Part shown: positions 41,974 to 56,074 of the stretch, one piece after another
Layout of the letters: each line of letters opens with the position of its first letter
How positions within the stretch are numbered: the stretch's first letter is position 1
Origin: Arthrobacter rhombi
Lineage (GTDB): Bacteria; Actinomycetota; Actinomycetes; Actinomycetales; Micrococcaceae
Direction of reading: 5' to 3'
NCBI RefSeq assembly: GCF_900163545.1
Contig: NZ_FUHW01000020.1
Span: 62,001 to 126,000, forward strand
DNA length: 64,000 nucleotides
Program-made: the position numbers and the translations under genes
The notes under the pieces: model-generated
Database searches by the model: none
Told to the model about the DNA's origin: nothing
What the model saw: the letters and a program-made list of their open reading frames with translations, nothing else

Positions 41974-44292
41974 CTACGTTTTGATTTGCCCACGAGCGGC
42001 TGCTAGATCACGACCTGTGAGGATATCTTTCGGATCGATGCCGACAGCTTTGGCCAGGCCAGTGAAGTGGGTTTCGTCGCAAGCCCGCATAAATGCCATA
42101 ACGCCCTTAACCGAAGGGAGTAAGGCCATCTCCACACCGGTTGATGACGGGTCTGGTGCTGAGCGGTGAGACTGATTGTGGAGGAAGGTCTTTACTTGAT
42201 TGGCTACGCCGCTGCTAATCCCGGTCGGAATACATAGTGCAAATCGACTGCCGAAGTTCGATGCCTGCGGTGCTTTGAATGCGAGGAACCCCTCTATGAG
42301 CCGCCGCGCGGCATTGCCAACCACGGGTAGGTTCTCGTCGTCGAGCCCTGCACAGGCTTCCGCAACCCTGCGGAATAGGTAAACGTATTCTGAAGGCGCG
42401 CTTAGTATCTTTTCTGGGAACGCTCTTATAGTAATTTCGTTGGAATCCGCTCCGACGATTTGAGAACTTCGGATCTCTAGGACTCGATGGGCTGGCACCG
42501 TTCCAGCGCCATCAGGTGCATCAGGTTCGTCGTTTTCATTCGAATTTTGCGCTCGTAGTTGAAGCTGGAAGAAGTCGAAACTGTGGGTGAGGAGAATTCG
42601 CTGACGCACTCCATCAAGTTGTTGATCCAACCACGCTGAAGTCGCGAAAACATTCTCTCTATCGAGGCTAGTGGAGGGGTCGTCAATTACGACAGTGGCA
42701 TTTTTCCGGTCGAAGTTGTCATCGTCAAGAGTCCGAATAAAGTAAACAAGCGCCAAAATGCGCTGCTCGCCTTCGGAAAGGAACTTTGCTGGTCCATCTT
42801 CCCTGACGGCTTGATATCCCGAGCCGTCACTTGTCGGTTGAATCGTGAGGGTCGTTTTTCCAAAGATCGTATGGAGATCGTCGGTCAGCTGCGCTGCCAT
42901 CTCCGAGGTATTTAGGCGGCGCGCCTCGATTGCCTTCAGCTTGCTAGCGCAAGATTCGGACTGCGCGTTCACCAGTTCCAAAGCGCTAGCGACCCTAGCC
43001 AGTCGATTCTCAGCGGCCGTCAAGTCGCTTTGATGAAAGGCTGCGGCGTGGAGGGCCAATTCATCTACAGCCTTATTTTGCACGGCCGAATAGTCCGTTC
43101 GTTCAGTTTCGTGTCGTTCGACACATGCAGCGAGTTCCGCTAGAAAGTCTTGGCTTCGCATATTTGGGCTCGCGAGTGATTCGTCATAAGACAGGTTCGT
43201 GGCCTTGGTTTCGCAAGCACTTTGGATTTCCCTGAGAGACGCCGTTGTTTCCACAACGAAGGCTTTCGCCGAGTCGACAGCCGATGCCCATTTCTCACTT
43301 TCAGCAGCAATGATGCCGGAGGGGGCTGAAAGCTCTCTTATCCATTGATCGAGCGCATGGCTGGCGTCAGCGCAACTGCTGGCCAGCGCTTCGGCATCAG
43401 CCCGGATCTGTGCGTTGCCATTCTTGAAGTAGGTAGTTAATCGAACCAGCAATGATTCAGGCATGTCGGAACCGCAGAATTTGCAATCGTCGTTGTTTTC
43501 GTGGTGTGCAATTCCACTTTGGACCCATGCAGCCAACGCTAGATCGCCGTCGAGTTCAGGGAACTCGCTTTCGCTCTGCCTACGGGCAATGATCAGGCGG
43601 GCTCGATTTGTGAAGTCACGGACATCCACGAGCGGCATGCTTGGAGGCGAGATGGCCTCCAGCGCGGCCTGTGAGAGCGTTCTCATATGTTGACGGGCTG
43701 TCTCTCTCGAGAGACGGACCGCCCGTGGGTTGTCCAAAAGGGCGCGTGCCTTAGTCGTTGTAAAACTGTTCGAATTGAATCTTGCGCCGTCGTAGGTGCC
43801 TAGAAATTCGATAACGAGCTCTTTGGTAGCGCTTATGGCCTTTTTGCGATTGGCGATACCGGCGAGTTGATCGCTTTCTAGCCCCGCTTTCCAGATGTCG
43901 TTTCGTGCCACCAATTTGGCAAGGAGCCGGCTCTCTGCTTCATCGTCGACCGCAACTTTGCCGAGTTTGATGATCGGGGCTGTCGGGCCGCTGCCCGAGA
44001 CGAACTCTCGAAGATTCTCGTGAACAAAATCAGAATTGAAAACCCAAACACGGTGACTCTCAAAAGGCGCTCCTTGAGTCAACCTTTGCGTGTCGGTATC
44101 CGTTACCAATGTTGTTTTTGAAGGGGCTCCAACAGTTCCAAGCTGTCGAAGCAATTCGGAAATAGTGGACTTTCCAGATCCATTCGCACCGAATATGAGC
44201 GTATAGGCGCCGAAATACGATTGGTCGCCTCCTACATGCGGAGATTGGGCGAGAGTCCGAAAATTCTCGACATGGGCTATGTGTTGGATCAC
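41974..44292 (-). CDS. rloC: RloC-like ATPase / predicted anticodon nuclease
   Basis: A 772-residue AAA_13-family protein with an ABC-type head: Walker A GANGSGKST (35-43), signature-like LSEGEQ (505-510), Walker B TVVIDDPSTSLD (533-544) and switch His570. The middle is helical/coiled-coil with a C270-K-F-C273 pair, the place of the zinc hook in RloC. The C-terminal domain has R663-x3-E667 (ARRLIEGF) followed by H705 and H709 (LHNQSH), fitting the R-x3-E-xn-H anticodon-nuclease triad of PrrC and RloC. Its ATG overlaps the hsdR stop by four bases. In known cases such proteins cut tRNA anticodons when the restriction system is disabled or DNA is damaged. GC is lower than in hsdR, suggesting separate acquisition. 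Nuclease activity is inferred. Confidence 0.78.
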   Translation of the reverse strand: MIQHIAHVENFRTLAQSPHVGGDQSYFGAYTLIFGANGSGKSTISELLRQLGTVGAPSKTTLVTDTDTQRLTQGAPFESHRVWVFNSDFVHENLREFVSGSGPTAPIIKLGKVAVDDEAESRLLAKLVARNDIWKAGLESDQLAGIANRKKAISATKELVIEFLGTYDGARFNSNSFTTTKARALLDNPRAVRLSRETARQHMRTLSQAALEAISPPSMPLVDVRDFTNRARLIIARRQSESEFPELDGDLALAAWVQSGIAHHENNDDCKFCGSDMPESLLVRLTTYFKNGNAQIRADAEALASSCADASHALDQWIRELSAPSGIIAAESEKWASAVDSAKAFVVETTASLREIQSACETKATNLSYDESLASPNMRSQDFLAELAACVERHETERTDYSAVQNKAVDELALHAAAFHQSDLTAAENRLARVASALELVNAQSESCASKLKAIEARRLNTSEMAAQLTDDLHTIFGKTTLTIQPTSDGSGYQAVREDGPAKFLSEGEQRILALVYFIRTLDDDNFDRKNATVVIDDPSTSLDRENVFATSAWLDQQLDGVRQRILLTHSFDFFQLQLRAQNSNENDEPDAPDGAGTVPAHRVLEIRSSQIVGADSNEITIRAFPEKILSAPSEYVYLFRRVAEACAGLDDENLPVVGNAARRLIEGFLAFKAPQASNFGSRFALCIPTGISSGVANQVKTFLHNQSHRSAPDPSSTGVEMALLPSVKGVMAFMRACDETHFTGLAKAVGIDPKDILTGRDLAAARGQIKT

Positions 44293-47200
44293 TGATTTTC
44301 CCCTTCGATGAATTCCGTGCAGTGCAGGCTCTGAGTCTCCATTTGTTCAATGACGAGCTTTATCGCTTCGGGTTGCTTATCCGGTGGGTAACCGTTGATC
44401 ACGAGGAGCCGCTTGATCGAGGAGCGGAGCTTGGCCCGCACATCCTCGCGGACGGTCCAGTCCGTGCGCACATCGCGGCGCATGATCGCCACCAGCTGGC
44501 GGGCGATCTCCGCCAGGACTCCTTCGCCCTGGATTTCGACGGCTGATTCATTGAGTGCCACGGCGTCGTAGAACGCCAGTTCGTCTTCGTTCAGAGGGGG
44601 AGTGAAACGCTGACCGCGCTGGGATTCCTGGGCAACTTCCTTCGCCAGTTCGACCAGCTCGGCGATGACTTCGGCCGACGTCAATTGCTGGTTGGTGTAC
44701 TTATTCATCAGTTCGGTGATCCGCTCCGAGAACGCCCGCTGCCGGATGGTGTTGTGCTTGGTCGATTTCGCCGACTCGTCGGCCACGAGTTTGCGCAATG
44801 CCTCGATGGCCAGCTGCGGGTTGCGGGCCTTCTGTGTCTTGGCGATGAACTCCGGGGTGAGATCACTCAGCGATGGCTTGGACATGCCGGCCGCTTCATA
44901 GATGTCCAGCACCTCCCCGGTGGCGTCCGTCGCGGAGGCGATGAGTTGCCCGAGCATCCGCTGGATCTCCTCGGGTACCGGTTCGCCGCGGGACTGGCGG
45001 TCCTGGGCGTCATACTTGCCCATCCAGACGCGAATCTCCTCATACACCTGAATGTCAGCGCGAAGGTCCTCCAACCTGCCTGAGCCCGTGCACAGGGCCC
45101 ATGCGCGGGCGAGTTGGCCGGCCGTTTGCCGGTACAACACCGCCAGCGTCGGGGCGTCGTCCGCGGGGGAGTTGCCCTCGGTCGTCGGGTCGCGGAGGTA
45201 GTTCACGGCCCCGGTGATGGCGTTCAGGAAGGACTTCGGCCCCGGCTTGGCCAGCACCGCCCGCCAGTCATAGCCAGCAAGAAGCGTCTTGATCTGCTCC
45301 ACCAGCTCGACGGCAAGGCCGGCGGCCTCGTCCACGTTCTTCCCGACCGGCTTCGCCTCCTGGTCGGTGCTGGAGTATTCGGCCAGGGACTTGGCCAGGT
45401 TCTCGGCCAGCGGGGCGTAGGCGACGAGCAGGCCGTCCTCCTTGCCGCGGAAGGTCCGGTTGACCCGGGCGAGGGTCTGCATCAGCAGGGCCCCCTTGAG
45501 TGGACGGTCCAGATAGAGGGTGTGCAGCGGCGGGGCATCGAAGCCGGTGAGCATCATGTCCTTGACGATCACCAGTTCCAGCTCGTCGTCCGGATCCTTG
45601 AGCCGTTCCTTGATGGTGTTGTTCAACGAGTCTCGCCGCACGTGGTTGGAGACCGGGGGGACATCGGAGGCGTTGCCGGAGTACACGACCTTGATCCGGC
45701 CCTTTTCGAGTTCGTCGGAGTGCCAGTCGGGGCGCAGCTTGATGATCTGGTCGTACAGATTCGCGCAGATTTCGCGAGTCCCGCCCACGATCATGGCCTT
45801 GCCATGCGTCGGCGAGCCGCCGGTGTCGGCGATGAACGGGGCCATGGTGTCCCGGCGGGTCCCCCAGTGCGTGACCAGATCCCGGGCAAGCTCCTCGAGC
45901 CGTTCGGGAGCCCCGTAGACGGCATTGACCACGGCCACGGACTGTTCAATCCGCGCCCGTTCGGTGTCGTCCAGCCCGGTGGTCGCCTCGTCGGCGGCCG
46001 AGTCCAGGTCATCCTGGGTCAGATCGGCGGCCAGCTGCACCTTGATCAACCGCGGTTCGAAGTAGACCGGGACGGTGGCGCCGTCCTCCACTGCCCTCGA
46101 GAGATCGTAGACGTCGATGTATTCGCCGAACACGTCCCGGGTGTTGCGGTCCTCGAAGGAGATCGGGGTGCCGGTGAAGGCGATCAGCGTGGCGTTGGGC
46201 AAGGCATCGCGCAGGTGCCGGGCGTAGCCATCGAGGTCGTCGTAGTGGCTACGGTGGGCCTCGTCGACGATGACGATGATGTTCTTCCGGTCCGAGAGCA
46301 GTGGGTGCACCGTCCCGGATTCCTTTTCCTCGGTGGTGCGGCTGAACTTCTGCAAGGTGGTGAAGTAGATGCCGCCGGTGACCCGGCCGGAGAGCTCGGT
46401 GCGTAATTCGGTACGACGGCGGATCTGCTTCGGCGTATCGGGTAGCAGCTGGGAGCGGGCGAACCCGGAGAAGAGCTGCCCGTCGAGTTCGTTGCGGTCG
46501 GTGATCACCACGACGGTGGGGTTCTTCAATGTCGGGTGGCGCATCACCCGGTTGGTGTAGAGCTCCATCTCCATGGACTTTCCCGAGCCCTGGGTGTGCC
46601 AGACGACGCCAGCCTTGCCATTGGTGCGGACCGCGTCGATGGTGGAGCCCACCGCTTTGGTGACGGCGAAGTACTGGTGCGGTTTGGCGATGCGCTTGAG
46701 CAGCCCCTCGGCGCCGCCGTCGAAGGCGGTGAAGGAGTGCAGCAGCTGCAGGAAACGGGTGGGGTTGTAGAGTCCGGCCAGCGCGGTTTCGATGGGAAGC
46801 ACCGCATCCCCGTCCACGGTGTGTCCGGGCGGGATTGGCTCGCCGTCGTCGTCCACGTTCCAGGGGGAGAAGTGGTTCAGCGGGGTGAACGGGGTCCCGT
46901 ATTTGGCGTCGATCCCGTCGGAGGCGAACGTGAAGACGCAGAATCTGAACGCGAGCGGGAACTCACGTAGGTAGGTTTGCAGCTGGGCATGCGCGGCGGC
47001 GACGTCTGCGGCTCGGGAGCCGGCTTTCTTCAGTTCCAGAATGCTTACAGGCATCCCATTGCAATACAGTACGACGTCGAAGCGTCGCCGGTAGTCGCCT
47101 TGGACCAGGGTGACCTGGTTGACGGCGAGCCAGTCGTTGTCGGTCTCTTCGGTGCCCAGGATCCGCAGGGTCGGGTTCTGCTCGGTGCCGTCCGGATCCA

Positions 47201-47507
47201 GGTAGGAGATCCGGTGGCCCTCGACGAACATCCTGTGCATCCGGTGGTTTTCGGTGATCGCGTCCTGCGAGGTCGGGGCGGCGATCGCGGCGAGAGCCTG
47301 CTGCAGGTACTGCTCCGGGACGCCGGGGTTCAGCCGGCGCAAAGCGGCAAGCAGACGAGGCCGTATCAGCAGGTCGTCCCAGGTTTCCCTTTCGCCCGAG
47401 CCGGGGGCGATCTGGTCCCCGTGGGTGGGCCGCCAGTTCTGGTCGCCGAGTTGCTCGAGGACGAGGTCTTCCCAATCCGCCTCGGTGAAGCTGATTTGCA
47501 GTGTCAT
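44289..47507 (-). CDS. hsdR: type I restriction endonuclease subunit R
   Basis: A 1072-residue motor and nuclease subunit. The N-terminal RecB-like nuclease shows D144 and E158-L-K160 (RRFDVVLYC..ILELKK). The helicase core follows: Walker A in HTQGSGKS (about 304-311), DEAH in IVIVDEAHRSHYDD, then TGTPI, and later motif VI-like QTLARVNRTF. The C-terminal region binds the methylase. It cuts unmodified DNA at a distance after translocation. Start ATG at 47507 with a GGGGG about eight bases upstream; a 216-bp gap separates it from hsdS. Confidence 0.95.
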   Translation of the reverse strand: MTLQISFTEADWEDLVLEQLGDQNWRPTHGDQIAPGSGERETWDDLLIRPRLLAALRRLNPGVPEQYLQQALAAIAAPTSQDAITENHRMHRMFVEGHRISYLDPDGTEQNPTLRILGTEETDNDWLAVNQVTLVQGDYRRRFDVVLYCNGMPVSILELKKAGSRAADVAAAHAQLQTYLREFPLAFRFCVFTFASDGIDAKYGTPFTPLNHFSPWNVDDDGEPIPPGHTVDGDAVLPIETALAGLYNPTRFLQLLHSFTAFDGGAEGLLKRIAKPHQYFAVTKAVGSTIDAVRTNGKAGVVWHTQGSGKSMEMELYTNRVMRHPTLKNPTVVVITDRNELDGQLFSGFARSQLLPDTPKQIRRRTELRTELSGRVTGGIYFTTLQKFSRTTEEKESGTVHPLLSDRKNIIVIVDEAHRSHYDDLDGYARHLRDALPNATLIAFTGTPISFEDRNTRDVFGEYIDVYDLSRAVEDGATVPVYFEPRLIKVQLAADLTQDDLDSAADEATTGLDDTERARIEQSVAVVNAVYGAPERLEELARDLVTHWGTRRDTMAPFIADTGGSPTHGKAMIVGGTREICANLYDQIIKLRPDWHSDELEKGRIKVVYSGNASDVPPVSNHVRRDSLNNTIKERLKDPDDELELVIVKDMMLTGFDAPPLHTLYLDRPLKGALLMQTLARVNRTFRGKEDGLLVAYAPLAENLAKSLAEYSSTDQEAKPVGKNVDEAAGLAVELVEQIKTLLAGYDWRAVLAKPGPKSFLNAITGAVNYLRDPTTEGNSPADDAPTLAVLYRQTAGQLARAWALCTGSGRLEDLRADIQVYEEIRVWMGKYDAQDRQSRGEPVPEEIQRMLGQLIASATDATGEVLDIYEAAGMSKPSLSDLTPEFIAKTQKARNPQLAIEALRKLVADESAKSTKHNTIRQRAFSERITELMNKYTNQQLTSAEVIAELVELAKEVAQESQRGQRFTPPLNEDELAFYDAVALNESAVEIQGEGVLAEIARQLVAIMRRDVRTDWTVREDVRAKLRSSIKRLLVINGYPPDKQPEAIKLVIEQMETQSLHCTEFIEGENQ

Positions 47508-47525
47508 CCCGTTTGCCCCCGGAGA

Positions 47526-47682
47526 CTAGATGTTGGTGTTGTTGGACTCGATGCCGTCTTCGTCGGCGTATGGCTGGACGCCGTCTTGCTTGACCGCTAG
47601 CAGGGTACCGATGTCGCCAGCCAGAAAGTTACTTTTCGTCTGACCGCCAGAGCTGTGGGTCAGTCCTGTGCCTTCCAGTCAT
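47526..47682 (-). pseudogene. possible small gene or remnant between hsdS and hsdR
   Basis: Codon use typical of real genes here is seen in a short reading ending at TAG 47528-47526: SNFLAGDIGTLLAVKQDGVQ and then PYADEDGIESNNTNI. From an ATG at 47682 another frame reads MTGRHRTDPQLWRSDEK and stops just where the former frame becomes plausible, as if one base had been lost or gained near 47630. No ribosome site is evident. It may be a decayed small protein of the RM locus; function unknown and status doubtful. Confidence 0.3.
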
Positions 47683-47723
47683 TTACTGTATCTATCCGGC
47701 GCCGGGTACGCGCCAAGTACAGG

Positions 47724-48884
47724 TCATACCACTGATGCGACCATAGTCTCAGAGTCCGTGACTTTGAGACTGCCCGACATCAATTGAGGAAGCAACGTGT
47801 CGCGGATGGTGGCGAGCGTCAGTCTCTCTCGTTCGACGTTGAGGGATGCTTGCCAGAGTGTCTCCATTAGGGGAGAAATTTCTTGGCGTAAGAGGTTACC
47901 GGGCACCAGCACCGGCTCATCAAGGTGCTTGCGCTGAATGTGACCCATTGTCGTGGCCTTATCTGCCGCGATTAATTTGAAATCCTCAATTTTGTTGCGC
48001 AGAAGCTCGTAGACCAGCCAGTGAGGGTACCCATCGCGAGGAATCACTTTGAAAATGTGCTGATTCACGATGGCATCGTCGCGGAACCAGCGATGAAGTG
48101 TCAGCGAACCGGACCAGGCGAATAAGATGTCTCCCGGGCTGGCCACATGTTTATTCTCGACTTCAGCATCGCTAAAGACCGTTGAACCGCCAAGACCCGA
48201 ATTTAGCTCAGCAATCCTGACAACCACTCGGCCAGTACCACTTGCGCCCTTAGTGAATGCTTTGCCGTTTACGAACTCGGCACAATCGGAGAGTGGCTGC
48301 AAATGTGCATCCGCAAGCGTGGCACGGAACTGTGCTTGCACCAAAGCGTCAATCGTGGCTAGCAGTTTCGTGTTGGTGGCGATCTTGTCGTCGAGGGAAC
48401 CGAGGACTTCGGCCATCGCCATTTGCTGTGGTAAAGGAGGCAAGCGAATCCGCATGTTCTTCGCTGAACCAACGTTGAAGTGCTGCTGGACTGCTCCGAC
48501 TAGCTGCGCGTCGACGAAGTTGGAACCTGCACTGTTCATGTAATAACTGAACCATCGAGCGTCGAGCTTGGGACCTGGCCGCGTGATCACGAGGTCCGAA
48601 CAATTGGCTATCGGTAGGTCTTCTGGAATCACGCTCGTTGTCCCTGGCTTTCCAGTTCTGACCGTCACCACGTCACCGGGCATCAGCATGGATTTCTTTA
48701 GCTTGGCATGGAACTCGGCAGATATGTACTTGACGTTCTCAAGGTCAAGGGTATGGGCATCAACGTTAAGCGATCGAAGAAACGGGATACCCTCCTCTCT
48801 GTAGTGTTGCGCCATTGGCCCGACGTGACCGACGGTAACTTCTGTGGCCAGATCTTGGAGGGAGACCTCCTTCCAATCATTCAC
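47724..48884 (-). CDS. hsdS: type I restriction specificity subunit
   Basis: A 386-residue DNA-recognition subunit with two target-recognition domains (about 1-150 and 200-340), each followed by a helical conserved region (RLPPLPQQMAMAEVLGSLDDKIATNTKLL and LLRQEISPLMETLWQASLNVERERLTL). The TRD segments GIPFLRSLNV..PGDVVTVRTG and FVNGKAF..VVRIAELNSG..GDILFAWSG are typical. The two halves define a bipartite target that cannot be predicted here. ATGA overlap with hsdM. GC is lower than in hsdM/hsdR, as is usual for exchangeable hsdS genes. Confidence 0.93.
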   Translation of the reverse strand: MNDWKEVSLQDLATEVTVGHVGPMAQHYREEGIPFLRSLNVDAHTLDLENVKYISAEFHAKLKKSMLMPGDVVTVRTGKPGTTSVIPEDLPIANCSDLVITRPGPKLDARWFSYYMNSAGSNFVDAQLVGAVQQHFNVGSAKNMRIRLPPLPQQMAMAEVLGSLDDKIATNTKLLATIDALVQAQFRATLADAHLQPLSDCAEFVNGKAFTKGASGTGRVVVRIAELNSGLGGSTVFSDAEVENKHVASPGDILFAWSGSLTLHRWFRDDAIVNQHIFKVIPRDGYPHWLVYELLRNKIEDFKLIAADKATTMGHIQRKHLDEPVLVPGNLLRQEISPLMETLWQASLNVERERLTLATIRDTLLPQLMSGSLKVTDSETMVASVV

Positions 48885-50494
48885 GAAACCCTCCCCAACT
48901 GCTCGCGCACGACCTGGGCCAACCGCTCGGACTCATCGAACTGTTCGAACAGCTCTTTCTTCAGCCGGGCGATCTTCTCTTCACTTGGTTCGCCGTCGTC
49001 CTCAATCTCCGCGGCGCCCACGTAACGACCCGGCGTGAGCGCATAGTCCGCGGTCTTGATCTCTTCCAGGGTGGCCGAATAGCAGAAGCCAGCTTCGTCG
49101 TTGAACTCGGTGCCAGCGGCGGAAGTCGAGCCGCGCCAGGCGTGGAAGGTGCCGGCGATCTTGGCGATGTCTTCGTCGGAGAGTGCGCGCTCAGCGCGGT
49201 CGACCATGTGCCCGAGCTGCCGGGCATCGATGAAGAGCACCTGCCCACTGCGGTCCACCGAACCGTGCTCGCCGGCAGCCTTGTCCTTGGAAAAGAACCA
49301 CGTACACACCGGGATCCCGGTGGAACGGAACAGCTGGGTGGGCAAGGCGACCATGCAGGAGACGAGATCGGACTCGACCAGCTGGGCGCGGATCTGTCCC
49401 TCCCCGCCCGAGTTTGAGGACATGGAACCGTTCGCCATGACCACTCCGGCTGAGCCGCCCGGGGCCAATTTGGAGATGATGTGCTGGATCCACGCATAGT
49501 TGGCGTTGTTCACCGGGGGGACGCCGTAGCGCCAGCGCGGGTCAGATTCGTTGCGGGCCCAGTCCTTGATGTTGAACGGCGGGTTCGCCATCACGAAGTC
49601 GGCCTGCATCTCCGGATGCTGGTCTCTTGCGAACGTGTCGCCCCAGCGTGGGGCCAGGTTGGCGTTGAGCCCGTGGATGGCCAGGTTCATCTTCGCCATC
49701 CGCCAGGTGCGCTCGTTCAGCTCTTGCCCGTAGACCGAGATCGCGGTGCGGTCCTCGTTGTGCGCGTCGAGGAACTTCTCGGTTTGGACGAACATGCCAC
49801 CGGAGCCACAGCAGGGATCGTAGACCCGCCCGTGGGTCGGTTGCAGGAGTTCGACTAGCACACGGACCACGCCGGCAGGGGTATAGAACTCACCACCGCG
49901 CTTACCCTCGGCCCGGGCGAACTTCTCCAGGAAGTACTCATACACTTCCCCGAGCAGATCGCGGGCCCGGCCGGCCCCTTGGCCGGTGAAGCGGGCGGAA
50001 TTGAACAGGTCGATCAGTTCGCCCAGCCGACGCTGGTCGACGCTGTCCCGGTTGAAGATCTTCGGCAGGGTTGCCGCCAATGAGGGGTTCGCGGCCATGA
50101 CCGCATCCATCGCCGCGTCGATGAGTTCGCCGATGTTCCGTGGCGGAGCCCCGTCGACGGCCGGCAGGCCCTTGGCGTTCTCGGCCAGGTATTCCCAGCG
50201 TGCATTGGCCGGAACCCAGAAAACGCCGTTGCCGGTGTATTCGTCGGTGTCGTCGATCAGCTGGGCGATCTGGCCCTCACTCATCCCGTCGGCGGCCAGC
50301 TCCTCGGCGAGCTGGGCGCGCCGTTCGGAGAAGGCATCGGATACGTACTTCAGGAACACCAGCCCCAGGATCACGTCCTTGTACTGCGAGGCATCCATGG
50401 AACCACGCAGTTTGTCGGCGGCCTTCCAGAGAGTGTCCTTGAGTTCCTTCATGGTGGACGGTGCCGTGGTGGCCTGTTTCTTCTTCGGGGGCAC
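48881..50494 (-). CDS. hsdM: type I DNA adenine methylase subunit
   Basis: A 537-residue N6-adenine methyltransferase: N-terminal HsdM helical domain, SAM-binding motif I DPCCGSGG (226-233) and catalytic NPPF (304-307). With HsdS it protects host sites and with HsdR it forms the restriction complex. GTG start at 50494 sharing one base with the TAG stop of the preceding gene, so the upstream HTH protein is part of the same operon. Confidence 0.95.
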   Translation of the reverse strand: MPPKKKQATTAPSTMKELKDTLWKAADKLRGSMDASQYKDVILGLVFLKYVSDAFSERRAQLAEELAADGMSEGQIAQLIDDTDEYTGNGVFWVPANARWEYLAENAKGLPAVDGAPPRNIGELIDAAMDAVMAANPSLAATLPKIFNRDSVDQRRLGELIDLFNSARFTGQGAGRARDLLGEVYEYFLEKFARAEGKRGGEFYTPAGVVRVLVELLQPTHGRVYDPCCGSGGMFVQTEKFLDAHNEDRTAISVYGQELNERTWRMAKMNLAIHGLNANLAPRWGDTFARDQHPEMQADFVMANPPFNIKDWARNESDPRWRYGVPPVNNANYAWIQHIISKLAPGGSAGVVMANGSMSSNSGGEGQIRAQLVESDLVSCMVALPTQLFRSTGIPVCTWFFSKDKAAGEHGSVDRSGQVLFIDARQLGHMVDRAERALSDEDIAKIAGTFHAWRGSTSAAGTEFNDEAGFCYSATLEEIKTADYALTPGRYVGAAEIEDDGEPSEEKIARLKKELFEQFDESERLAQVVREQLGRVS

Positions 50495-52569
50495 TACGGC
50501 CTTCCTTCCCTGGTGGGTGGTTCTTCATCAAGAGTAGCTATCACGCCGGCGGCGGCGCCGTCGAGCAGGAGAGCGGTCAGGTCATCGACCCGTTGCAGCC
50601 GGTCCAGTAGTTCGTCCCGTGTGGCCTCGACCCGGGCCAGCACGGCACCCAGCCCGGAAGCCGCCTCCGGGGTCAAGCTTCGCACAGGCCACTGACGCCA
50701 GGGGCCTCCCGGTGCGGCGTTGATGTCCGCCGCAAGGACGTCGGGGACGAGTGTCTGCTGACCGTCGCTTACCCGCAGGATCCGCGCCGGATACCGTACG
50801 ACGGCGGAGCCGACGCGGTCGACCACCGCCCGCGGTCTTGGGCCGGTGCGGAAGATGATGTCGCCGGGTTCGGTCAGGGTGGCTCGCGGATATTCCGCGG
50901 CGAGGACCATTGCGTTGATGTGGCGGCCGTCGGGTCGGCTGGTGGCGGGTTCCAGATGGTCGACGCCCCAAACGAGGAAGCCTTCACGGCCAAAGGATTC
51001 CGGGTCGATGCGGGTGCCGGGAAGGTAGCAGAGCTGGTTCTTCGCCAGCAGCGTGCCGAGGCTCTGCTGGGTGCGCGTTTTGCATTGCGGCAGAGATGAA
51101 TTGCCCGTTTTCGGCGCCACGTCGAAGGTAATGCCAGCGATGGCAGAGGGAAGCGGCGTCGACTCGATGGCGTCCATCGCTGACTCGAGGCGGACCATAT
51201 GGTCAACGGCGGACGGTTCCGCTCCCGCCGGCGACGGCGCAGCCGGTGGAGTCGACGAAAGCGGCAAGGCCGACCCGGAGGCCAACAGCGTGGGGGTCGG
51301 GACCAGGCGGGCGAACCGGAAGGCGTGGGCCGAAATCTCCCGCCGGGTCCCCAAGGAGGCAGAGAGGTCACTGATGAGGTCCTGTCGGGCGGCGGTGTCC
51401 AAGGTCGTGGCCGAGAGATCCGCGATCATGGTCCACCGATCGGCAATGGGCACGTTCGCATGTGCCGGGCCCATGACCCAGAGTGCCATGGCCCGCCGCG
51501 GGCTGGCGGGCAGTAGCTTCTCGGGGAGTCGGACTGAGGCGCGAATGCGTCCGGTGCGCAGGATGCGCGAACGGGCGCCCTCGCCGGCGGCGCGCAGTTC
51601 GTCGGTCAACGCTTCGGCGGGGGCGAGGATGACGGCGCTGTCCCAGGTACCGAGGTGCTGGACGAAGTCCTCCAGCCTGGTGAGTACGTCCACGGCTGTG
51701 GGGGAGGGGCTGCCCGGCGCCGGGAACTGGGCGACGTGGACGATTGGGCCGCCGGTGAGGCCGGGGCCCGCCGGCCCATGGCTTCCGCCGCTGCGCAGGT
51801 GGACTTTGAGTCGACGCTCGGCCAGTCGGGTGAGTGCTGCCCCGGTGCTCTCCAGGATTGCGGCGGAGTACGCCAGCCCGAATCGACCCGGCAGGGATTC
51901 GCCAAGTTCCCGCAGGATGGCCAGCGGGATATCGCTGCCGCCAACTGAGGCATCGAGGAAGGTCGGCACGACGTCGCGGCCTTCGCCCAGTCGCAGGGCC
52001 AGCTCCACCGCAGTCCCCGCCACCAGGGCCACGGCCCCGGGTGCGAGGCGCGTCTGGGACAGCCCCAGGAATCTGCCCTGCATCGCCTGCACGATGGCTT
52101 CCATGGCGGCCTCCGGGCTGAAGGCGGCATCAATGAGGTCACCGGCCAGCTCGGACAACCCTCGCAGTTTCTCTCCCAGTGCCTCGACCTCTGAGTAGAG
52201 GTAGGTGTCGTCCGGGTCCTTCTCGTCCGCGGCATCGACGATGTCCGCCTCGTTCAGCGTCGACAGGCTCTGGCCCGCGAGGCCCTGGAGCGCGATCAGT
52301 GCCGTCGCTGACAGTGGATCGTCAATCGTCGAGATCGCGTGGATGGCCACGTCCAGCGCCGCTTCGGGATTATTGCCGCGGCCCGTCTCTGTCAGCCACC
52401 GGGCAATGTCGCCGGCGTCGAACAGCTCTTGCGCGCCGCGCGTCGATGCGGCAGCGGGAAAGTGGTGGCCCGTGGGGCTCGCACGTTTGCGCCACATGCT
52501 CACGACCGGGCGGCGGACCTGCGCTAGGTGGGCGACATCGGTGAGGGTGAGCAGTTGTTGCCGGCCCAT
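50494..52569 (-). CDS. HTH / degenerate N6-methylase-like protein heading the RM operon
   Basis: A 691-residue protein. Residues 5-75 are a MerR-like or excisionase-like HTH (LLTLTDVAHLAQVRRPVVSMWRKR, then AQELFDAGDIARWLTETGRG). The middle resembles an N6-adenine methylase in spacing but no NPPY/F catalytic motif or Gly-rich SAM loop can be found. The C-terminal ~200 residues look like a TRD (PGDIIFRTGPRPRAVVDRVGSAVVRYPARILRVSD, then LLDRLQRVDDLTALLLDGAA). ATG at 52569 with GGGAGG four bases upstream. I read it as a DNA-binding relative of HTH-methylase-TRD proteins that has lost methylation and may act as regulator or targeting partner of the RM system. Confidence 0.62.
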   Translation of the reverse strand: MGRQQLLTLTDVAHLAQVRRPVVSMWRKRASPTGHHFPAAASTRGAQELFDAGDIARWLTETGRGNNPEAALDVAIHAISTIDDPLSATALIALQGLAGQSLSTLNEADIVDAADEKDPDDTYLYSEVEALGEKLRGLSELAGDLIDAAFSPEAAMEAIVQAMQGRFLGLSQTRLAPGAVALVAGTAVELALRLGEGRDVVPTFLDASVGGSDIPLAILRELGESLPGRFGLAYSAAILESTGAALTRLAERRLKVHLRSGGSHGPAGPGLTGGPIVHVAQFPAPGSPSPTAVDVLTRLEDFVQHLGTWDSAVILAPAEALTDELRAAGEGARSRILRTGRIRASVRLPEKLLPASPRRAMALWVMGPAHANVPIADRWTMIADLSATTLDTAARQDLISDLSASLGTRREISAHAFRFARLVPTPTLLASGSALPLSSTPPAAPSPAGAEPSAVDHMVRLESAMDAIESTPLPSAIAGITFDVAPKTGNSSLPQCKTRTQQSLGTLLAKNQLCYLPGTRIDPESFGREGFLVWGVDHLEPATSRPDGRHINAMVLAAEYPRATLTEPGDIIFRTGPRPRAVVDRVGSAVVRYPARILRVSDGQQTLVPDVLAADINAAPGGPWRQWPVRSLTPEAASGLGAVLARVEATRDELLDRLQRVDDLTALLLDGAAAGVIATLDEEPPTREGRP

Positions 52570-53005
52570 GATGCCTCCCTGATCCCGATGTTGACGATGT
52601 CGAGTCTTGAGTCTAAGCGTCATTTGTCTCGAAGTCCCCTTGACGCTGATAAGCCCACTTATCAGCATAAATCTGTCTCGGATCGTTGCTTTTTTCTAAT
52701 GTCAGTGTTGTTCCGCCGGGCTTCTGGCGGAACCGGCGGGAGTCCTCAAAGGCAATTGGGGGTGGGGCTCCCGCCACCTCTCGCACCTCGACGTAAGGCA
52801 GTCCAGCATGGAACACCCAACCGGAACCCGCGATCCCTGGCAGCAGCCCGGTTCGCCCGCCCACCTATCCGAGCCGGTTCGACCGGGGCCGTCGATCGGC
52901 AAGCCCTGGGCATTCGGCATCATGGGGTTTCGGTAGTAACGGCGTGAAATTGCGCGCCAAGACACGCGGTGCATGGTTTCGCCGCTGCTGGGTAGGGTGT
53001 AACGC
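52570..53005. other. 436-bp intergenic region between RM operon and tnpA
   Basis: No gene is supported. It holds the RM promoter side (see the inverted repeat at 52645) and, towards tnpA, probably the outer end of the Tn3 element; I could not define a 38-bp terminal repeat with confidence. Confidence 0.4.
52645..52666. promoter_or_regulatory. inverted repeat GCTGATAAG-N4-CTTATCAGC upstream of the RM operon
   Basis: Exact 9-bp arms 52645-52653 and 52658-52666 with a CCCA centre, 76-97 bases before the start of the HTH gene, in an AT-rich patch suitable for a promoter. The HTH protein encoded first in the operon is one candidate to bind it. Confidence 0.5.
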
Positions 53006-56000
53006 ATGCCGGTGGATTTCTTGAGTGATGAGCAGGCCGCCAGGTTCGGGCGGTTTAGCGGGGACCCCTTGCAAACCGACTTGGAGCGGTTCTTTTACCT
53101 TGATGATGCCGACCGGGAGCTGATCGCCAAACGGCGCGGAGACCACAATCGGCTGGGGTTCGCCGTGCAGGTTGGTACCGTCCGCTTCTTGGGGTCGTTC
53201 CTCACGGACCCGCTTGATGTTCCGTGGACCGTGGTCGACTATCTGGCTGCCCAGCTCGGGATTTCGGACCCCTCTGCGGTGAAGCGATACACCGTACGCG
53301 TAGAGACAGCCAACACCCATGCCCGTGAGATCCGCACCGCATACGGGTATCGCGAGTGCATCGGGGCGGTGCCCGGGGAGTTGGCGGAGTTTGTGTACTC
53401 ACGTGCTTGGACCCATGGCGAGGGGCCGACCGTGTTGTTCGAGCACGCGACGGCGTGGCTTCGCCGTGAGCGGGTACTGCTGCCCGGGGTGACGACGCTC
53501 GTACGGGTGGTGCAGTCTTCACGCGAGGCAGCACAGGGGCGGATGCACTCGATGCTCGCGGCGGCGGCGCAGCAAGTCGACGCCGGGCTCCCGGCCACGT
53601 TGCTCGGTCTGCTCAAGAAGGACCATGGCCAACAGGTTTCAAGGCTGGAGGCGTTGCGGGCGGGCCCGACGCGGGTCTCGGGTCCCGAGCTGGAGAAGGC
53701 GTTGCACCGGGTCGAGGCGGTCCGAACGCTCGGGGCCGGGGCAGTTGATATGTCGGAGGTACCTGCAGCACGGGTGCGGGAGCTGGCACGGTACGGGCTG
53801 GGTGCAAAGGCACAGTCGTTGCGGAGGCTGGCCGAGCCTCGTCGTTCGGCGACGCTGGTGGCAACGGTAGCGGCATTGGAAGCCGCAGCGGTCGATGATG
53901 CGCTGGACCTGTTCGATCTGCTGATGACCACGAAGGTGCTCGGCCCCTCGCGCCGAGCGGCGGCCGCGGAACGATTGGCGAAGATGCCCGAGCTGGAGCA
54001 GGCCTCGAGCATCCTGGCCCGGGTCGGGCAGACGCTGTTGCGTGTTCTTGGGGAATCCGGCGAACAGGTCGATGTCGTGGCAGCGTGGGCGGCGCTGGAA
54101 CAAGTCGCCGCCCGTGACCGGATTGCCGATGCGGTGGCGAAGGTGGGGGAACTCGTCCCGGACCAGAGGGGTGCTGCCGGGGCGATGCGTGAGCAGATGG
54201 CGCGTCGGTTCCGCACGGTGGCTCCGTTCCTGCGCCTGTTGTCCACGACAATTCCGTGGGGTGCCATCCCGGTCGGGCAGCAAGTCCTGGACGCATTGTC
54301 CGGACTGGACGGATTGCGGGGTCGGCGCAGGGTGCGACGCGAGGAAGTCGATGAAGCGCTGGTGCCACCGGCCTGGCATGGCGTGGTGTTCGAAGCCGCG
54401 GGCGAGTCCGAAGTGAATCGGGATGCATGGGTGGTGTGCGTTCTGGAACAGCTCCGTGCGAGCCTGCGCCGCCGGGACGTGTTCGCCCTGACCTCGACCC
54501 GGTGGAGCGATCCGCGCGCCCAGCTGCTCACCGGATCCGCCTGGGACACGGCGCGGGAGCAGGCCTTGCGGTCCTTGAGCCTGGAAGGCCCGGTGAGTGA
54601 GCACCTTGCCGGGAAGGTCGAGGTGCTGGATGCCGCGTGGCGGGGCCTGTCCGACTCAATTGGTCAGGCCGGCCCCGAGGCGAGCCTTCGCCTGGTCGAG
54701 GACGGCAACGGGCGGGTGAAACTCTCGGTGACTCCCCTGGACGCATTGGTCATCCCCGAGTCGCTGACAAACCTGCGGGCGCAGGTTGCCGGCATGCTGC
54801 CACGGGTGGACCTTCCCGAGATCCTCCTGGAGGTTCACTCCTGGACAGGATTCCTTCACTCCTACACCCACGCGTCCGGCGCCGGTGCCAGAATGGGTGA
54901 TCTGCCGCTGTCGGTCGCCGCGGTACTGACCGCTCAGGCCTGCAATGTCGGGCTCACACCCGTCGTCGCCGAGGGGCACCCGGCTCTGACTCGGGACAGG
55001 TTGGGGCATGTGGAGGCGAACTACGTGCGCGCCGAGACCCACACGCTCGCCAACGGGCGGCTGATCGAGGCGCAGTCCGGCGTGCCAATCATCGCGTCGT
55101 GGGGTGGCGGATTGCTGGCCTCGGTCGACGGGTTGCGGTTCGTGGTCCCGGTCCGGACGATCAACGCCGCCCCGAACCCGAAGTACTTTGGACGTGGGCG
55201 GGGGCTGACGTGGTTCAACGCCGTCAACGACCAAGTCTCAGGCATTGGTGCCGTGGTCGTGCCGGGCACGGCGCGGGACTCGCTGTACGTGCTGGACACC
55301 ATGCTCAATCTCGATGGCGGACCCAAACCCGAGATGGTTGCCTCCGACACCGCTTCCTACTCCGACATGGTCTTCGGGATTTTCACCCTGCTCGGCTACA
55401 AGTTCTCACCCCGGATCGCCGATCTCTCCGACCAGCGACTGTGGCGCGCCACAGCCCCCGGACAGGACCCGGGCGACTATGGGGTATTGAATGACATTGC
55501 CAGGCACAAGATTCGCCTGGACAAGATCAGCGCCCATTGGGATGACATGACCCGGGTGGCGGCATCGCTGGCGACCGGGACGGTTCGCGCCTATGACGTG
55601 CTGCGTACGCTCACCCGCGACAATGGGTCCCCCTCCCCGCTGGGTTCCGCGATCCTCGAGTACGGGCGCATGGCCAAGACCCTTCATCTGCTGGCTCTGG
55701 TCGATCCGTCGGATGAGACCTACCGGCGGGCCATCAACACCCAGCTCACCGTCCAGGAATCACGCCACCGCCTGGCCCGGGCGATCTTCCACGGGCGGCG
55801 CGGCCAGGTCTACCAGCGCTACCGCGAGGGGCAAGAAGACCAGCTCGGAGCGCTCGGCCTGGTGCTCAACGCCGTCGTGCTGTGGAACACCCGTTATACG
55901 GACGCCGCCATTGCCGCCCTGCGCGAAGCCGGAGCAGAGATCTCCGAAAACGACATCGCCCGCTTGTCACCGCTGGGAAATCAGCACATCAACACGCTCG

Positions 56001-56074
56001 GCCGTTACGCTTTCACCGCACCAACGCCCGACGGGCTGCGCCCACTGAGAAAACAGCTCCAGCCGGAGGGCTGA
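53006..56074 (+). CDS. tnpA: Tn3-family transposase
   Basis: A 1022-residue DDE transposase with full family length. The N-terminus has the Tn3-type DNA-binding domain (FSGDPLQTDLERFFYLDD, LGFAVQVGTVRFLGSFL). The catalytic part shows SWGGGLLASVDGLRF and VASDTASYSDMVFG, which include the two active-site Asp, and the Glu region in the last 150 residues around QRYREGQEDQLGALGLVLNAVVLWNT. It moves the element by copy-in replicative transposition. No frameshift seen, so it may be active. Confidence 0.95.
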   Translation: MPVDFLSDEQAARFGRFSGDPLQTDLERFFYLDDADRELIAKRRGDHNRLGFAVQVGTVRFLGSFLTDPLDVPWTVVDYLAAQLGISDPSAVKRYTVRVETANTHAREIRTAYGYRECIGAVPGELAEFVYSRAWTHGEGPTVLFEHATAWLRRERVLLPGVTTLVRVVQSSREAAQGRMHSMLAAAAQQVDAGLPATLLGLLKKDHGQQVSRLEALRAGPTRVSGPELEKALHRVEAVRTLGAGAVDMSEVPAARVRELARYGLGAKAQSLRRLAEPRRSATLVATVAALEAAAVDDALDLFDLLMTTKVLGPSRRAAAAERLAKMPELEQASSILARVGQTLLRVLGESGEQVDVVAAWAALEQVAARDRIADAVAKVGELVPDQRGAAGAMREQMARRFRTVAPFLRLLSTTIPWGAIPVGQQVLDALSGLDGLRGRRRVRREEVDEALVPPAWHGVVFEAAGESEVNRDAWVVCVLEQLRASLRRRDVFALTSTRWSDPRAQLLTGSAWDTAREQALRSLSLEGPVSEHLAGKVEVLDAAWRGLSDSIGQAGPEASLRLVEDGNGRVKLSVTPLDALVIPESLTNLRAQVAGMLPRVDLPEILLEVHSWTGFLHSYTHASGAGARMGDLPLSVAAVLTAQACNVGLTPVVAEGHPALTRDRLGHVEANYVRAETHTLANGRLIEAQSGVPIIASWGGGLLASVDGLRFVVPVRTINAAPNPKYFGRGRGLTWFNAVNDQVSGIGAVVVPGTARDSLYVLDTMLNLDGGPKPEMVASDTASYSDMVFGIFTLLGYKFSPRIADLSDQRLWRATAPGQDPGDYGVLNDIARHKIRLDKISAHWDDMTRVAASLATGTVRAYDVLRTLTRDNGSPSPLGSAILEYGRMAKTLHLLALVDPSDETYRRAINTQLTVQESRHRLARAIFHGRRGQVYQRYREGQEDQLGALGLVLNAVVLWNTRYTDAAIAALREAGAEISENDIARLSPLGNQHINTLGRYAFTAPTPDGLRPLRKQLQPEG

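What the first reader, a model, noticed from the sequence alone, without database searches (positions are those of the whole stretch)
41974..47507. RloC-like anticodon nuclease translationally coupled to a type I restriction subunit
The gene after hsdR encodes an AAA_13 ATPase with Walker A (35-43), LSEGEQ, Walker B, a CxxC pair at 270-273 where RloC has its zinc hook, and an R663-x3-E667...H709 set that fits the anticodon-nuclease triad of PrrC/RloC. Its start overlaps the hsdR stop by four bases, so it is made with the restriction motor. Known PrrC is silenced by its type I system and activated by phage anti-restriction; RloC responds to DNA damage. An actinobacterial version fixed by translation coupling to HsdR would be a two-layer abortive defence. 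GC is lower than in hsdR, so it seems to be a separately gained module.
Basis: partly seen in the sequence, partly recalled or inferred. Interest (0 to 1): 0.82.

Follow-up and report, generated by a model that had tools for sequence, protein, structure and literature searches.

The report
RloC tRNA nuclease beside restriction enzyme
The gene looks like a well-formed member of RloC, a known family of bacterial tRNA-cutting toxins, placed as the last gene of a type I restriction operon; it is a sound but mostly ordinary example of a known kind of back-up phage defence.

Summary
The gene at 41974-44292 (minus strand, 772 aa, GTG start) overlaps the hsdR stop by 4 bp and carries the ABC-ATPase motifs, a CxxC hook and the R663/E667/H709 set. 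In 71 aligned intact sequences C270, C273, R663, S708 and H709 never vary; E667 is E in 68 and D in 3. Spacing matches the published RloC motif, and the C-terminal domain alone resembles HEPN RNase folds. So it fits RloC, not PrrC. Restriction linkage is not new: rloC means 'restriction-linked orf'. Of 80 relatives fetched, 17 have hsdR within the held flank, and 13 of those 17 overlap a neighbouring hsd gene by 1 or 4 bp. The same order hsdM-hsdS-hsdR-rloC, with a 1-bp overlap, occurs in another genome of the same order. The gene does look separately gained; low GC is weak evidence for that (rloC is lower than its flanks in 66 of 68 loci), but 17 related operons from 16 genomes, with HsdR up to 84% identical, show no rloC. 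Gating by the restriction complex is plausible but untested; one studied, unlinked RloC ignores its R-M system.

The parts
41974..44292 (-). rloC-like gene, 772 aa, GTG start, PF13166 AAA_13
44167..44190 (-). Walker A GANGSGKS, residues 35-42
43474..43485 (-). CKFC zinc-hook motif, residues 270-273, in a stretch between two helices of the helical insert
   Evidence: (71 of 71)
42763..42780 (-). ABC signature LSEGEQ, residues 505-510
42676..42693 (-). Walker B VVIDDP, residues 534-539
41977..42495 (-). C-terminal domain (residues 600-772), predicted HEPN-like RNase fold
42292..42306 (-). R663 and E667 of the R-x3-E-x41-H triad
42166..42168 (-). H709 of the triad, preceded by S708
44289..47507 (-). 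hsdR, 1072 aa; ELK, GSGKS, DEAH and FTGTP motifs present
44289..44292 (-). 4-bp overlap of hsdR stop (TGA) and rloC start (GTG)
47724..48884 (-). hsdS, 386 aa, two Methylase_S stretches
48881..50494 (-). hsdM, 537 aa, NPPF present; overlaps hsdS by 4 bp
50494..52668 (-). uncharacterised 724-aa gene, no Pfam match, stop overlaps hsdM start by 1 bp; found upstream of hsdM in relatives

Best explanation
The protein is an RloC: a Rad50-like ABC ATPase with a coiled-coil zinc hook and a C-terminal HEPN ribonuclease that, when released, cuts tRNA in the anticodon loop and stops translation. It was added as a last gene to an actinobacterial type I R-M operon, where its start codon overlaps the end of hsdR, so that its translation is probably coupled to HsdR's. 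The most likely working is a second layer: restriction acts first; if phage or host DNA is broken or restriction is disabled, the ATPase/hook switch frees the nuclease and the infected cell shuts down. Shown here: family, motifs, operon and overlap, rloC-free relatives of the operon. Inferred from characterised RloCs: tRNA cleavage, restraint by the hook, response to DNA ends. Inferred and weakest: that the HsdR/M/S complex itself takes part in holding or releasing it.
For: Family: PF13166 E 1.4e-83, PADLOC PDC-S06 E 1.2e-98. Triad and hook invariant or nearly so in 71 rows. Spacing E667-x41-H709 falls in the published R-x3-E-x36-52-H with Ser before His, and 772 aa in the published 658-897 (PMC2610378 section 5). 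Model of the whole protein, mean pLDDT 86, pTM 0.63, has a Rad50/SMC head (5da9 Z 16.2, rmsd 6.6, 295 aligned). C-domain model alone, pLDDT 85, pTM 0.79: 13 of the first 23 VIA rows say HEPN in their titles, best Z 8.2 and 8.0. hsdR and hsdM keep catalytic motifs, hsdS both Methylase_S stretches. Type I linkage is clustered on the tree: 19 linked rows need 6 changes against 16.9 for shuffled labels.
Against: No activity can be tested here. Foldseek finds no significant match for the C-domain (best E 0.24, Csm6'); Z near 8 for a helical domain is not proof, and unrelated rows (RSV M2-1, aminoglycoside adenylyltransferases) stand among the first 23. In Acinetobacter baylyi an unlinked RloC was activated by nalidixic acid in R-M mutants as in wild type (PMC3874168, passages read), so the family needs no R-M partner. 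RloC occurs in genomes with no HSDR_N match: 12 of 29 actinobacterial genomes examined, some of them drafts or MAGs. In a second sample of 16 stretches from the window's family and class, only 1 (L103) had hsdR nearby.
Confidence: 0.6

Rival explanations
1. It is an RloC that works alone. The operon position only gives co-expression and co-inheritance in a defence cassette; the trigger is broken DNA, and the restriction complex plays no part in its control.
For: Unlinked A. baylyi RloC is independent of its R-M genes (PMC3874168, passages). Most relatives are not linked as far as seen: 63 of 80 loci show no hsdR in the held flank, which is short for some; 15 of 16 further stretches likewise. 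The nearest relatives, Leucobacter L018 and L033 and L019, have no hsd gene nearby by the box search.
Against: Linkage is clustered on the tree and needs several changes, and 13 of 17 hsdR-linked loci are directly overlapped with hsd genes, more intimate than island neighbours need to be.
Confidence: 0.3
2. The C-terminal HEPN domain cuts another RNA (mRNA, or another part of tRNA) rather than the anticodon loop.
For: HEPN RNases cut other RNAs too, such as mRNA by RNase LS and LsoA (PMC3710099, passages); the substrate cannot be read from sequence, and the protein is only 19-28% identical to the other rows.
Against: The RloC/PrrC triad layout with Ser before His is kept.
Confidence: 0.12
3. 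The gene is a decayed or silent copy.
For: Long branch on the tree (3.08); some relatives are broken (frames split in L080, L094 and L005/L016; one TAA inside the L016 match).
Against: Open frame of 772 codons with every motif intact.
Confidence: 0.05

Closest known systems
RloC (Geobacillus kaustophilus, Acinetobacter baylyi; Davidov and Kaufmann 2008, Klaiman et al. 2014)
   Same: Rad50-like ATPase, central CX2C hook, R-x3-E...SH triad, size, GUG starts known in the family; some members sit in type I or III R-M loci (8 of 73 in the 2008 paper)
   Different: In the passages read, the two assayed ones are not in an intact R-M operon (G. kaustophilus beside an hsdR relic, A. baylyi unlinked). 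Here it is the last gene of an intact hsd operon.
PrrC of EcoprrI
   Same: ABC ATPase plus ACNase triad, embedded in a type I R-M locus, possible guard of restriction
   Different: PrrC is 341-416 aa without the zinc-hook insert; here 772 aa with hook. The PADLOC PrrC profile matches only residues 506-576 at E 4.8e-5.
R-M-linked RloC relatives in other bacteria (this work: L039, L040, L042, L045-L048, L092, L069, L103, L158)
   Same: Overlapping or adjacent hsd and rloC genes; L158 has the same order hsdM-hsdS-hsdR-rloC with a 1-bp overlap
   Different: In L039, L040, L042, L045-L048, L092 and L069 rloC lies before hsdR; L103 and L087 have a YgjP-like metallopeptidase gene between hsdR and rloC.
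PADLOC candidate PDC-S06
   Same: Near full-length match, E 1.2e-98
   Different: A candidate label; the library gives no mechanism for it.

Membership tests
RloC | AAA_13/ABC ATPase with Walker A, signature, Walker B, switch His | tested here: met
   PF13166 E 1.4e-83, residues 26-732; G35, G40, K41, G508, E509, D537, D538, H570 71/71
RloC | R-x3-E-x36-52-H with Ser usually before His | tested here: met
   R663-x3-E667-x41-H709, S708; R, S, H 71/71, E 68/71 with 3 D; motif from PMC2610378
RloC | CX2C hook within a long helical insert splitting the ATPase | tested here: met
   C270/C273 71/71; between helices 251-264 and 279-320 in the model
RloC | 658-897 aa | tested here: met
   772 aa; range from PMC2610378
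RloC | C-terminal HEPN-type RNase fold | tested here: inconclusive
   VIA: 13 of the first 23 rows say HEPN, best Z 8.2, rmsd 3.5, 105 aligned; Foldseek best E 0.24, HEPN toxin at E 2.0
RloC | tRNA wobble-nucleotide excision; activation by DNA breaks | not testable with these tools
   bench assay needed
PrrC | 341-416 aa, no zinc-hook insert | tested here: not met
   772 aa with hook; size
PrrC | linked to a type I R-M locus | tested here: met
   type I operon; PrrC is said to be linked to type Ic, and the subtype was not tested here
PrrC | silenced by the R-M complex and released by an anti-restriction peptide | not testable with these tools
   bench assay needed

The most novel reading that the evidence does not exclude
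R-M-linked RloCs are a class assembled several times over in which an RloC, whose own switch reads DNA ends, has also been put under a restriction complex in the manner of PrrC: a dual sensor of DNA breakage and of restriction failure. The window's hsdR-rloC junction and the operon L158, which has the same gene order with a more distant HsdR, would be two such cases.
Probability: 0.3. Interest if true: 0.6.

Novelty: new member of a known kind. Interest (0 to 1): 0.32.

Why it matters
In the passages I read, whether an RloC can be controlled by a restriction complex is left open: the assayed A. baylyi RloC is unlinked and R-M-independent (PMC3874168). An intact operon with rloC directly behind hsdR, plus related operons without rloC, gives a natural pair for that test. 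Beyond this it extends a known family.

Tried and rejected
PrrC as family: rejected on size and hook. PDB by sequence: no entry named RloC or PrrC among the 5 matches or the 60 shown of 153; the best there are AriA (E 3.6e-8) and SMC1A (9.4e-8). Whole-model Foldseek: the 50 rows shown per library are mainly Rad50, SMC and Lamassu-like heads, with a few ABC transporter and retron ATPase chains and SbcC/SMC-like or unnamed viral proteins. Close relatives in viral contigs by single-protein scan: none; two weak partial matches in phage records; no near-identical DNA in E. coli (megablast). A Tn3 transposon carrying the cassette: between 39000 and 58500 only four inverted pairs of 22-26 nt at 73-82%, taken as chance. 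DNA flank comparison with family and genus genomes gave matches to the transporter and other flank genes but no clear empty chromosomal site; rloC-free R-M operons served instead. Low GC as evidence of acquisition: set aside (66 of 68 loci; loci with under 6 kb of flank were left out, and the window itself was not among the 68). Divergent last 15 codons of hsdR: suggestive only, because that tail varies among the relatives too. PDC-S06 in papers: 4 hits, listing only.

Rows dropped: of the 80 loci, 10 were left out of A2 (copies or near-copies L058, L059, L060, L062, L064, L066; L072 cut by the contig end; L077, L080, L094 with broken frames). L077 and its twin L006 (Kocuria) have a C-terminal frame that departs from the family and loses the SH motif, with the family's continuation in another frame, so 'invariant' holds for the intact rows used. 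A3 used 62 of the 71 rows. hsd genes in relatives were found with HMMs seeded from the window's own hsd proteins, so distant hsd families may be missed. Start codons are the nearest candidates, not proven starts. The tree is a quick one that warns of long branches meeting, the window's among them.

Full report
Observation. The coordinates, overlap and residues in the finding are exact. The gene runs 44292 to 41974 on the minus strand, 772 codons from a GTG; hsdR runs 47507 to 44289; the four bases GTGA are shared. Walker A, CKFC (270-273), LSEGEQ (505), Walker B (534), R663, E667, S708 and H709 are all where stated.

Family. Pfam AAA_13 covers residues 26-732 at 1.4e-83 and PADLOC's PDC-S06 nearly the whole protein at 1.2e-98, while the PrrC profile matches only residues 506-576, around Walker B, weakly. 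A scan of genome contigs gave the best 80 of 315 confirmed loci; 70 of them plus the window were aligned. C270, C273, R663, S708, H709 and H742 are identical in 71 of 71 and E667 in 68, the rest D. The paper that described RloC gives R-x3-E-x36-52-H, Ser often before His, a CX2C hook inside a helical insert, 658-897 aa, and GUG starts in 13 of 70 (PMC2610378; section 5 and passages read). All sequence criteria are met.

Structure. An AlphaFold2 model from the 71-row alignment has mean pLDDT 86, pTM 0.63. Its head matches Rad50 and SMC structures (Z about 15-16 at the top). The last 173 residues were folded alone (pLDDT 85, pTM 0.79). Foldseek has no significant match (best E 0.24, Csm6'), but in the VIA second look HEPN structures dominate the top: 13 of the first 23 rows say HEPN in their titles, with best Z 8.2 over 105 residues; a few rows among them are unrelated by title, such as RSV M2-1 at Z 6.2. 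This agrees with the published assignment of the RloC and PrrC nuclease domains to HEPN (PMC3710099, passages). The tool warns that Z near 8 in a helical domain can be a common arrangement, so I take this as support, not proof.

Operon. The order is an unassigned 724-aa gene, hsdM, hsdS, hsdR, rloC, all on one strand, with overlaps of 1, 4 and 4 bp at three junctions and 216 bp between hsdS and hsdR. HsdR and HsdM keep their catalytic motifs. The overlap at hsdR/rloC is therefore of a kind with the rest of the operon.

How common is the linkage? Of the 80 loci, 17 have hsdR in the held flank of up to 8 kb, and one more has hsdM and hsdS. Of the 17, 13 have a 1- or 4-bp overlap between rloC and a neighbouring hsd gene: eight rloC-hsdR (L039, L040, L042, L045-L048, L092), four hsdS-rloC (L043, L052, L055, L075) and L069 on both sides. 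L030 and L044 are convergent with hsdR; L049 and L087 are spaced. On a tree of the 71 rows the linkage label (19 rows) needs 6 changes against a mean of 16.9 for shuffled labels; most linked rows form one mainly proteobacterial and myxobacterial clade, and the tree is a quick one with several long branches, the window's among them. A second sample points the other way on frequency: of 16 rloC-bearing stretches from the window's family and class, 1 (L103) had hsdR nearby.

The exact arrangement. Directly hsdR then rloC was not seen in the 80. Among 29 further loci with about 1.5 kb of flank (one the window itself, two the same gene) one more had it, L141, and L156 had an hsdS-like frame against rloC. 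L158, the wider stretch around L141, is hsdM-hsdS-hsdR-rloC with TAGTG, a 1-bp overlap at the nearest candidate start. In the window's own family L103 is hsdMS-hsdR-ygjP-like-rloC, and L087 has the same hsdR-ygjP-rloC order. So the window's design is uncommon in this sample but not unique.

Gain of the module. That is weak: rloC is below its flank in 66 of 68 loci. A better test uses the first gene of the operon. Its relatives were found in 25 of 297 genomes of the order, own included, and 17 of these operons from 16 genomes were read. hsdR was found in 15, its 3' end in 13, with identities of those 13 to the window's HsdR of 50 to 84%; the rloC HMM finds nothing in any of the 17 stretches. 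HsdR agrees with its two closest relatives up to Q-M-E at residue 1057, then the last 15 codons differ and run into rloC. That tail also varies among the relatives, so the precise join is only suggested. The gene was most likely added to an operon that usually lacks it.

Function. In A. baylyi nalidixic acid activated RloC in wild type and in R-M mutants alike, and purified G. [quoted passage not shown] PrrC by contrast is silenced by its type I enzyme and turned on by a T4 anti-restriction peptide, Stp (PMC3874168 and PMC12707154, passages). Of 29 actinobacterial genomes with an RloC relative, 12 had no HSDR_N match, so the partner seems dispensable for the family. For the window I favour a second defence layer behind restriction, with the family's own break sensor as the main switch and gating by the restriction complex as an open possibility. 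The own genome carries a second type I system on contig C10 without rloC beside it, a further weak, interrupted HSDR_N match on C18 and no second PF13166 match.

Novelty. The linkage, the two-layer idea and the nuclease class are in print (PMC2610378, PMC3710099; passages). Searches for RloC with anticodon nuclease, with hsdR, with hsdS and operon, and with Actinobacteria (listings, four papers opened for passages) showed me nothing on an hsdR-coupled RloC beyond these, but the library holds open-licence papers only and most of the listed papers were not opened. I file it as a new member of a known kind.

Noticed in passing
window 50494-52668 (-); relatives L162-L172, L173-L189: A 724-aa protein with no Pfam match (weak N-terminal hits to an excisionase/regulator PHROG and to PADLOC PDC-M06B) is the first gene of the R-M operon. 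In 10 of 11 relatives' loci an hsdM frame follows closely; the eleventh ends inside the gene. It looks like a conserved, uncharacterised component of actinobacterial type I R-M operons.
   Followed up: partly
window 53006-56074 (+): Tn3-family transposase gene (DDE_Tnp_Tn3, E 3.7e-126) next to the R-M operon; no convincing flanking inverted repeats found.
   Followed up: partly
L103 3392-4123 (-), L087 6979-7707 (+): A YgjP-like metallopeptidase gene lies between hsdR and rloC in an actinobacterium and a deltaproteobacterial MAG.
   Followed up: no
L159 4643-13532: An hsdM/hsdS-like frame, rloC, an unidentified gene (RhuM-like by eye, recalled, not tested) and an hsdR-like gene in one row.
   Followed up: no
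L173-L189, between hsdS and hsdR; window 47508-47723: The space between hsdS and hsdR in this operon type varies from none to several kb with different genes; the window has 216 bp without an assigned gene.
   Followed up: no
plasmids collection: 137 of 72,556 plasmid records carry a match to this protein, 105 of them typed conjugative.
   Followed up: no
L118 (own genome, contig C10): A second type I R-M operon (hsdM, hsdS, hsdR) without rloC beside it in the same genome.
   Followed up: partly
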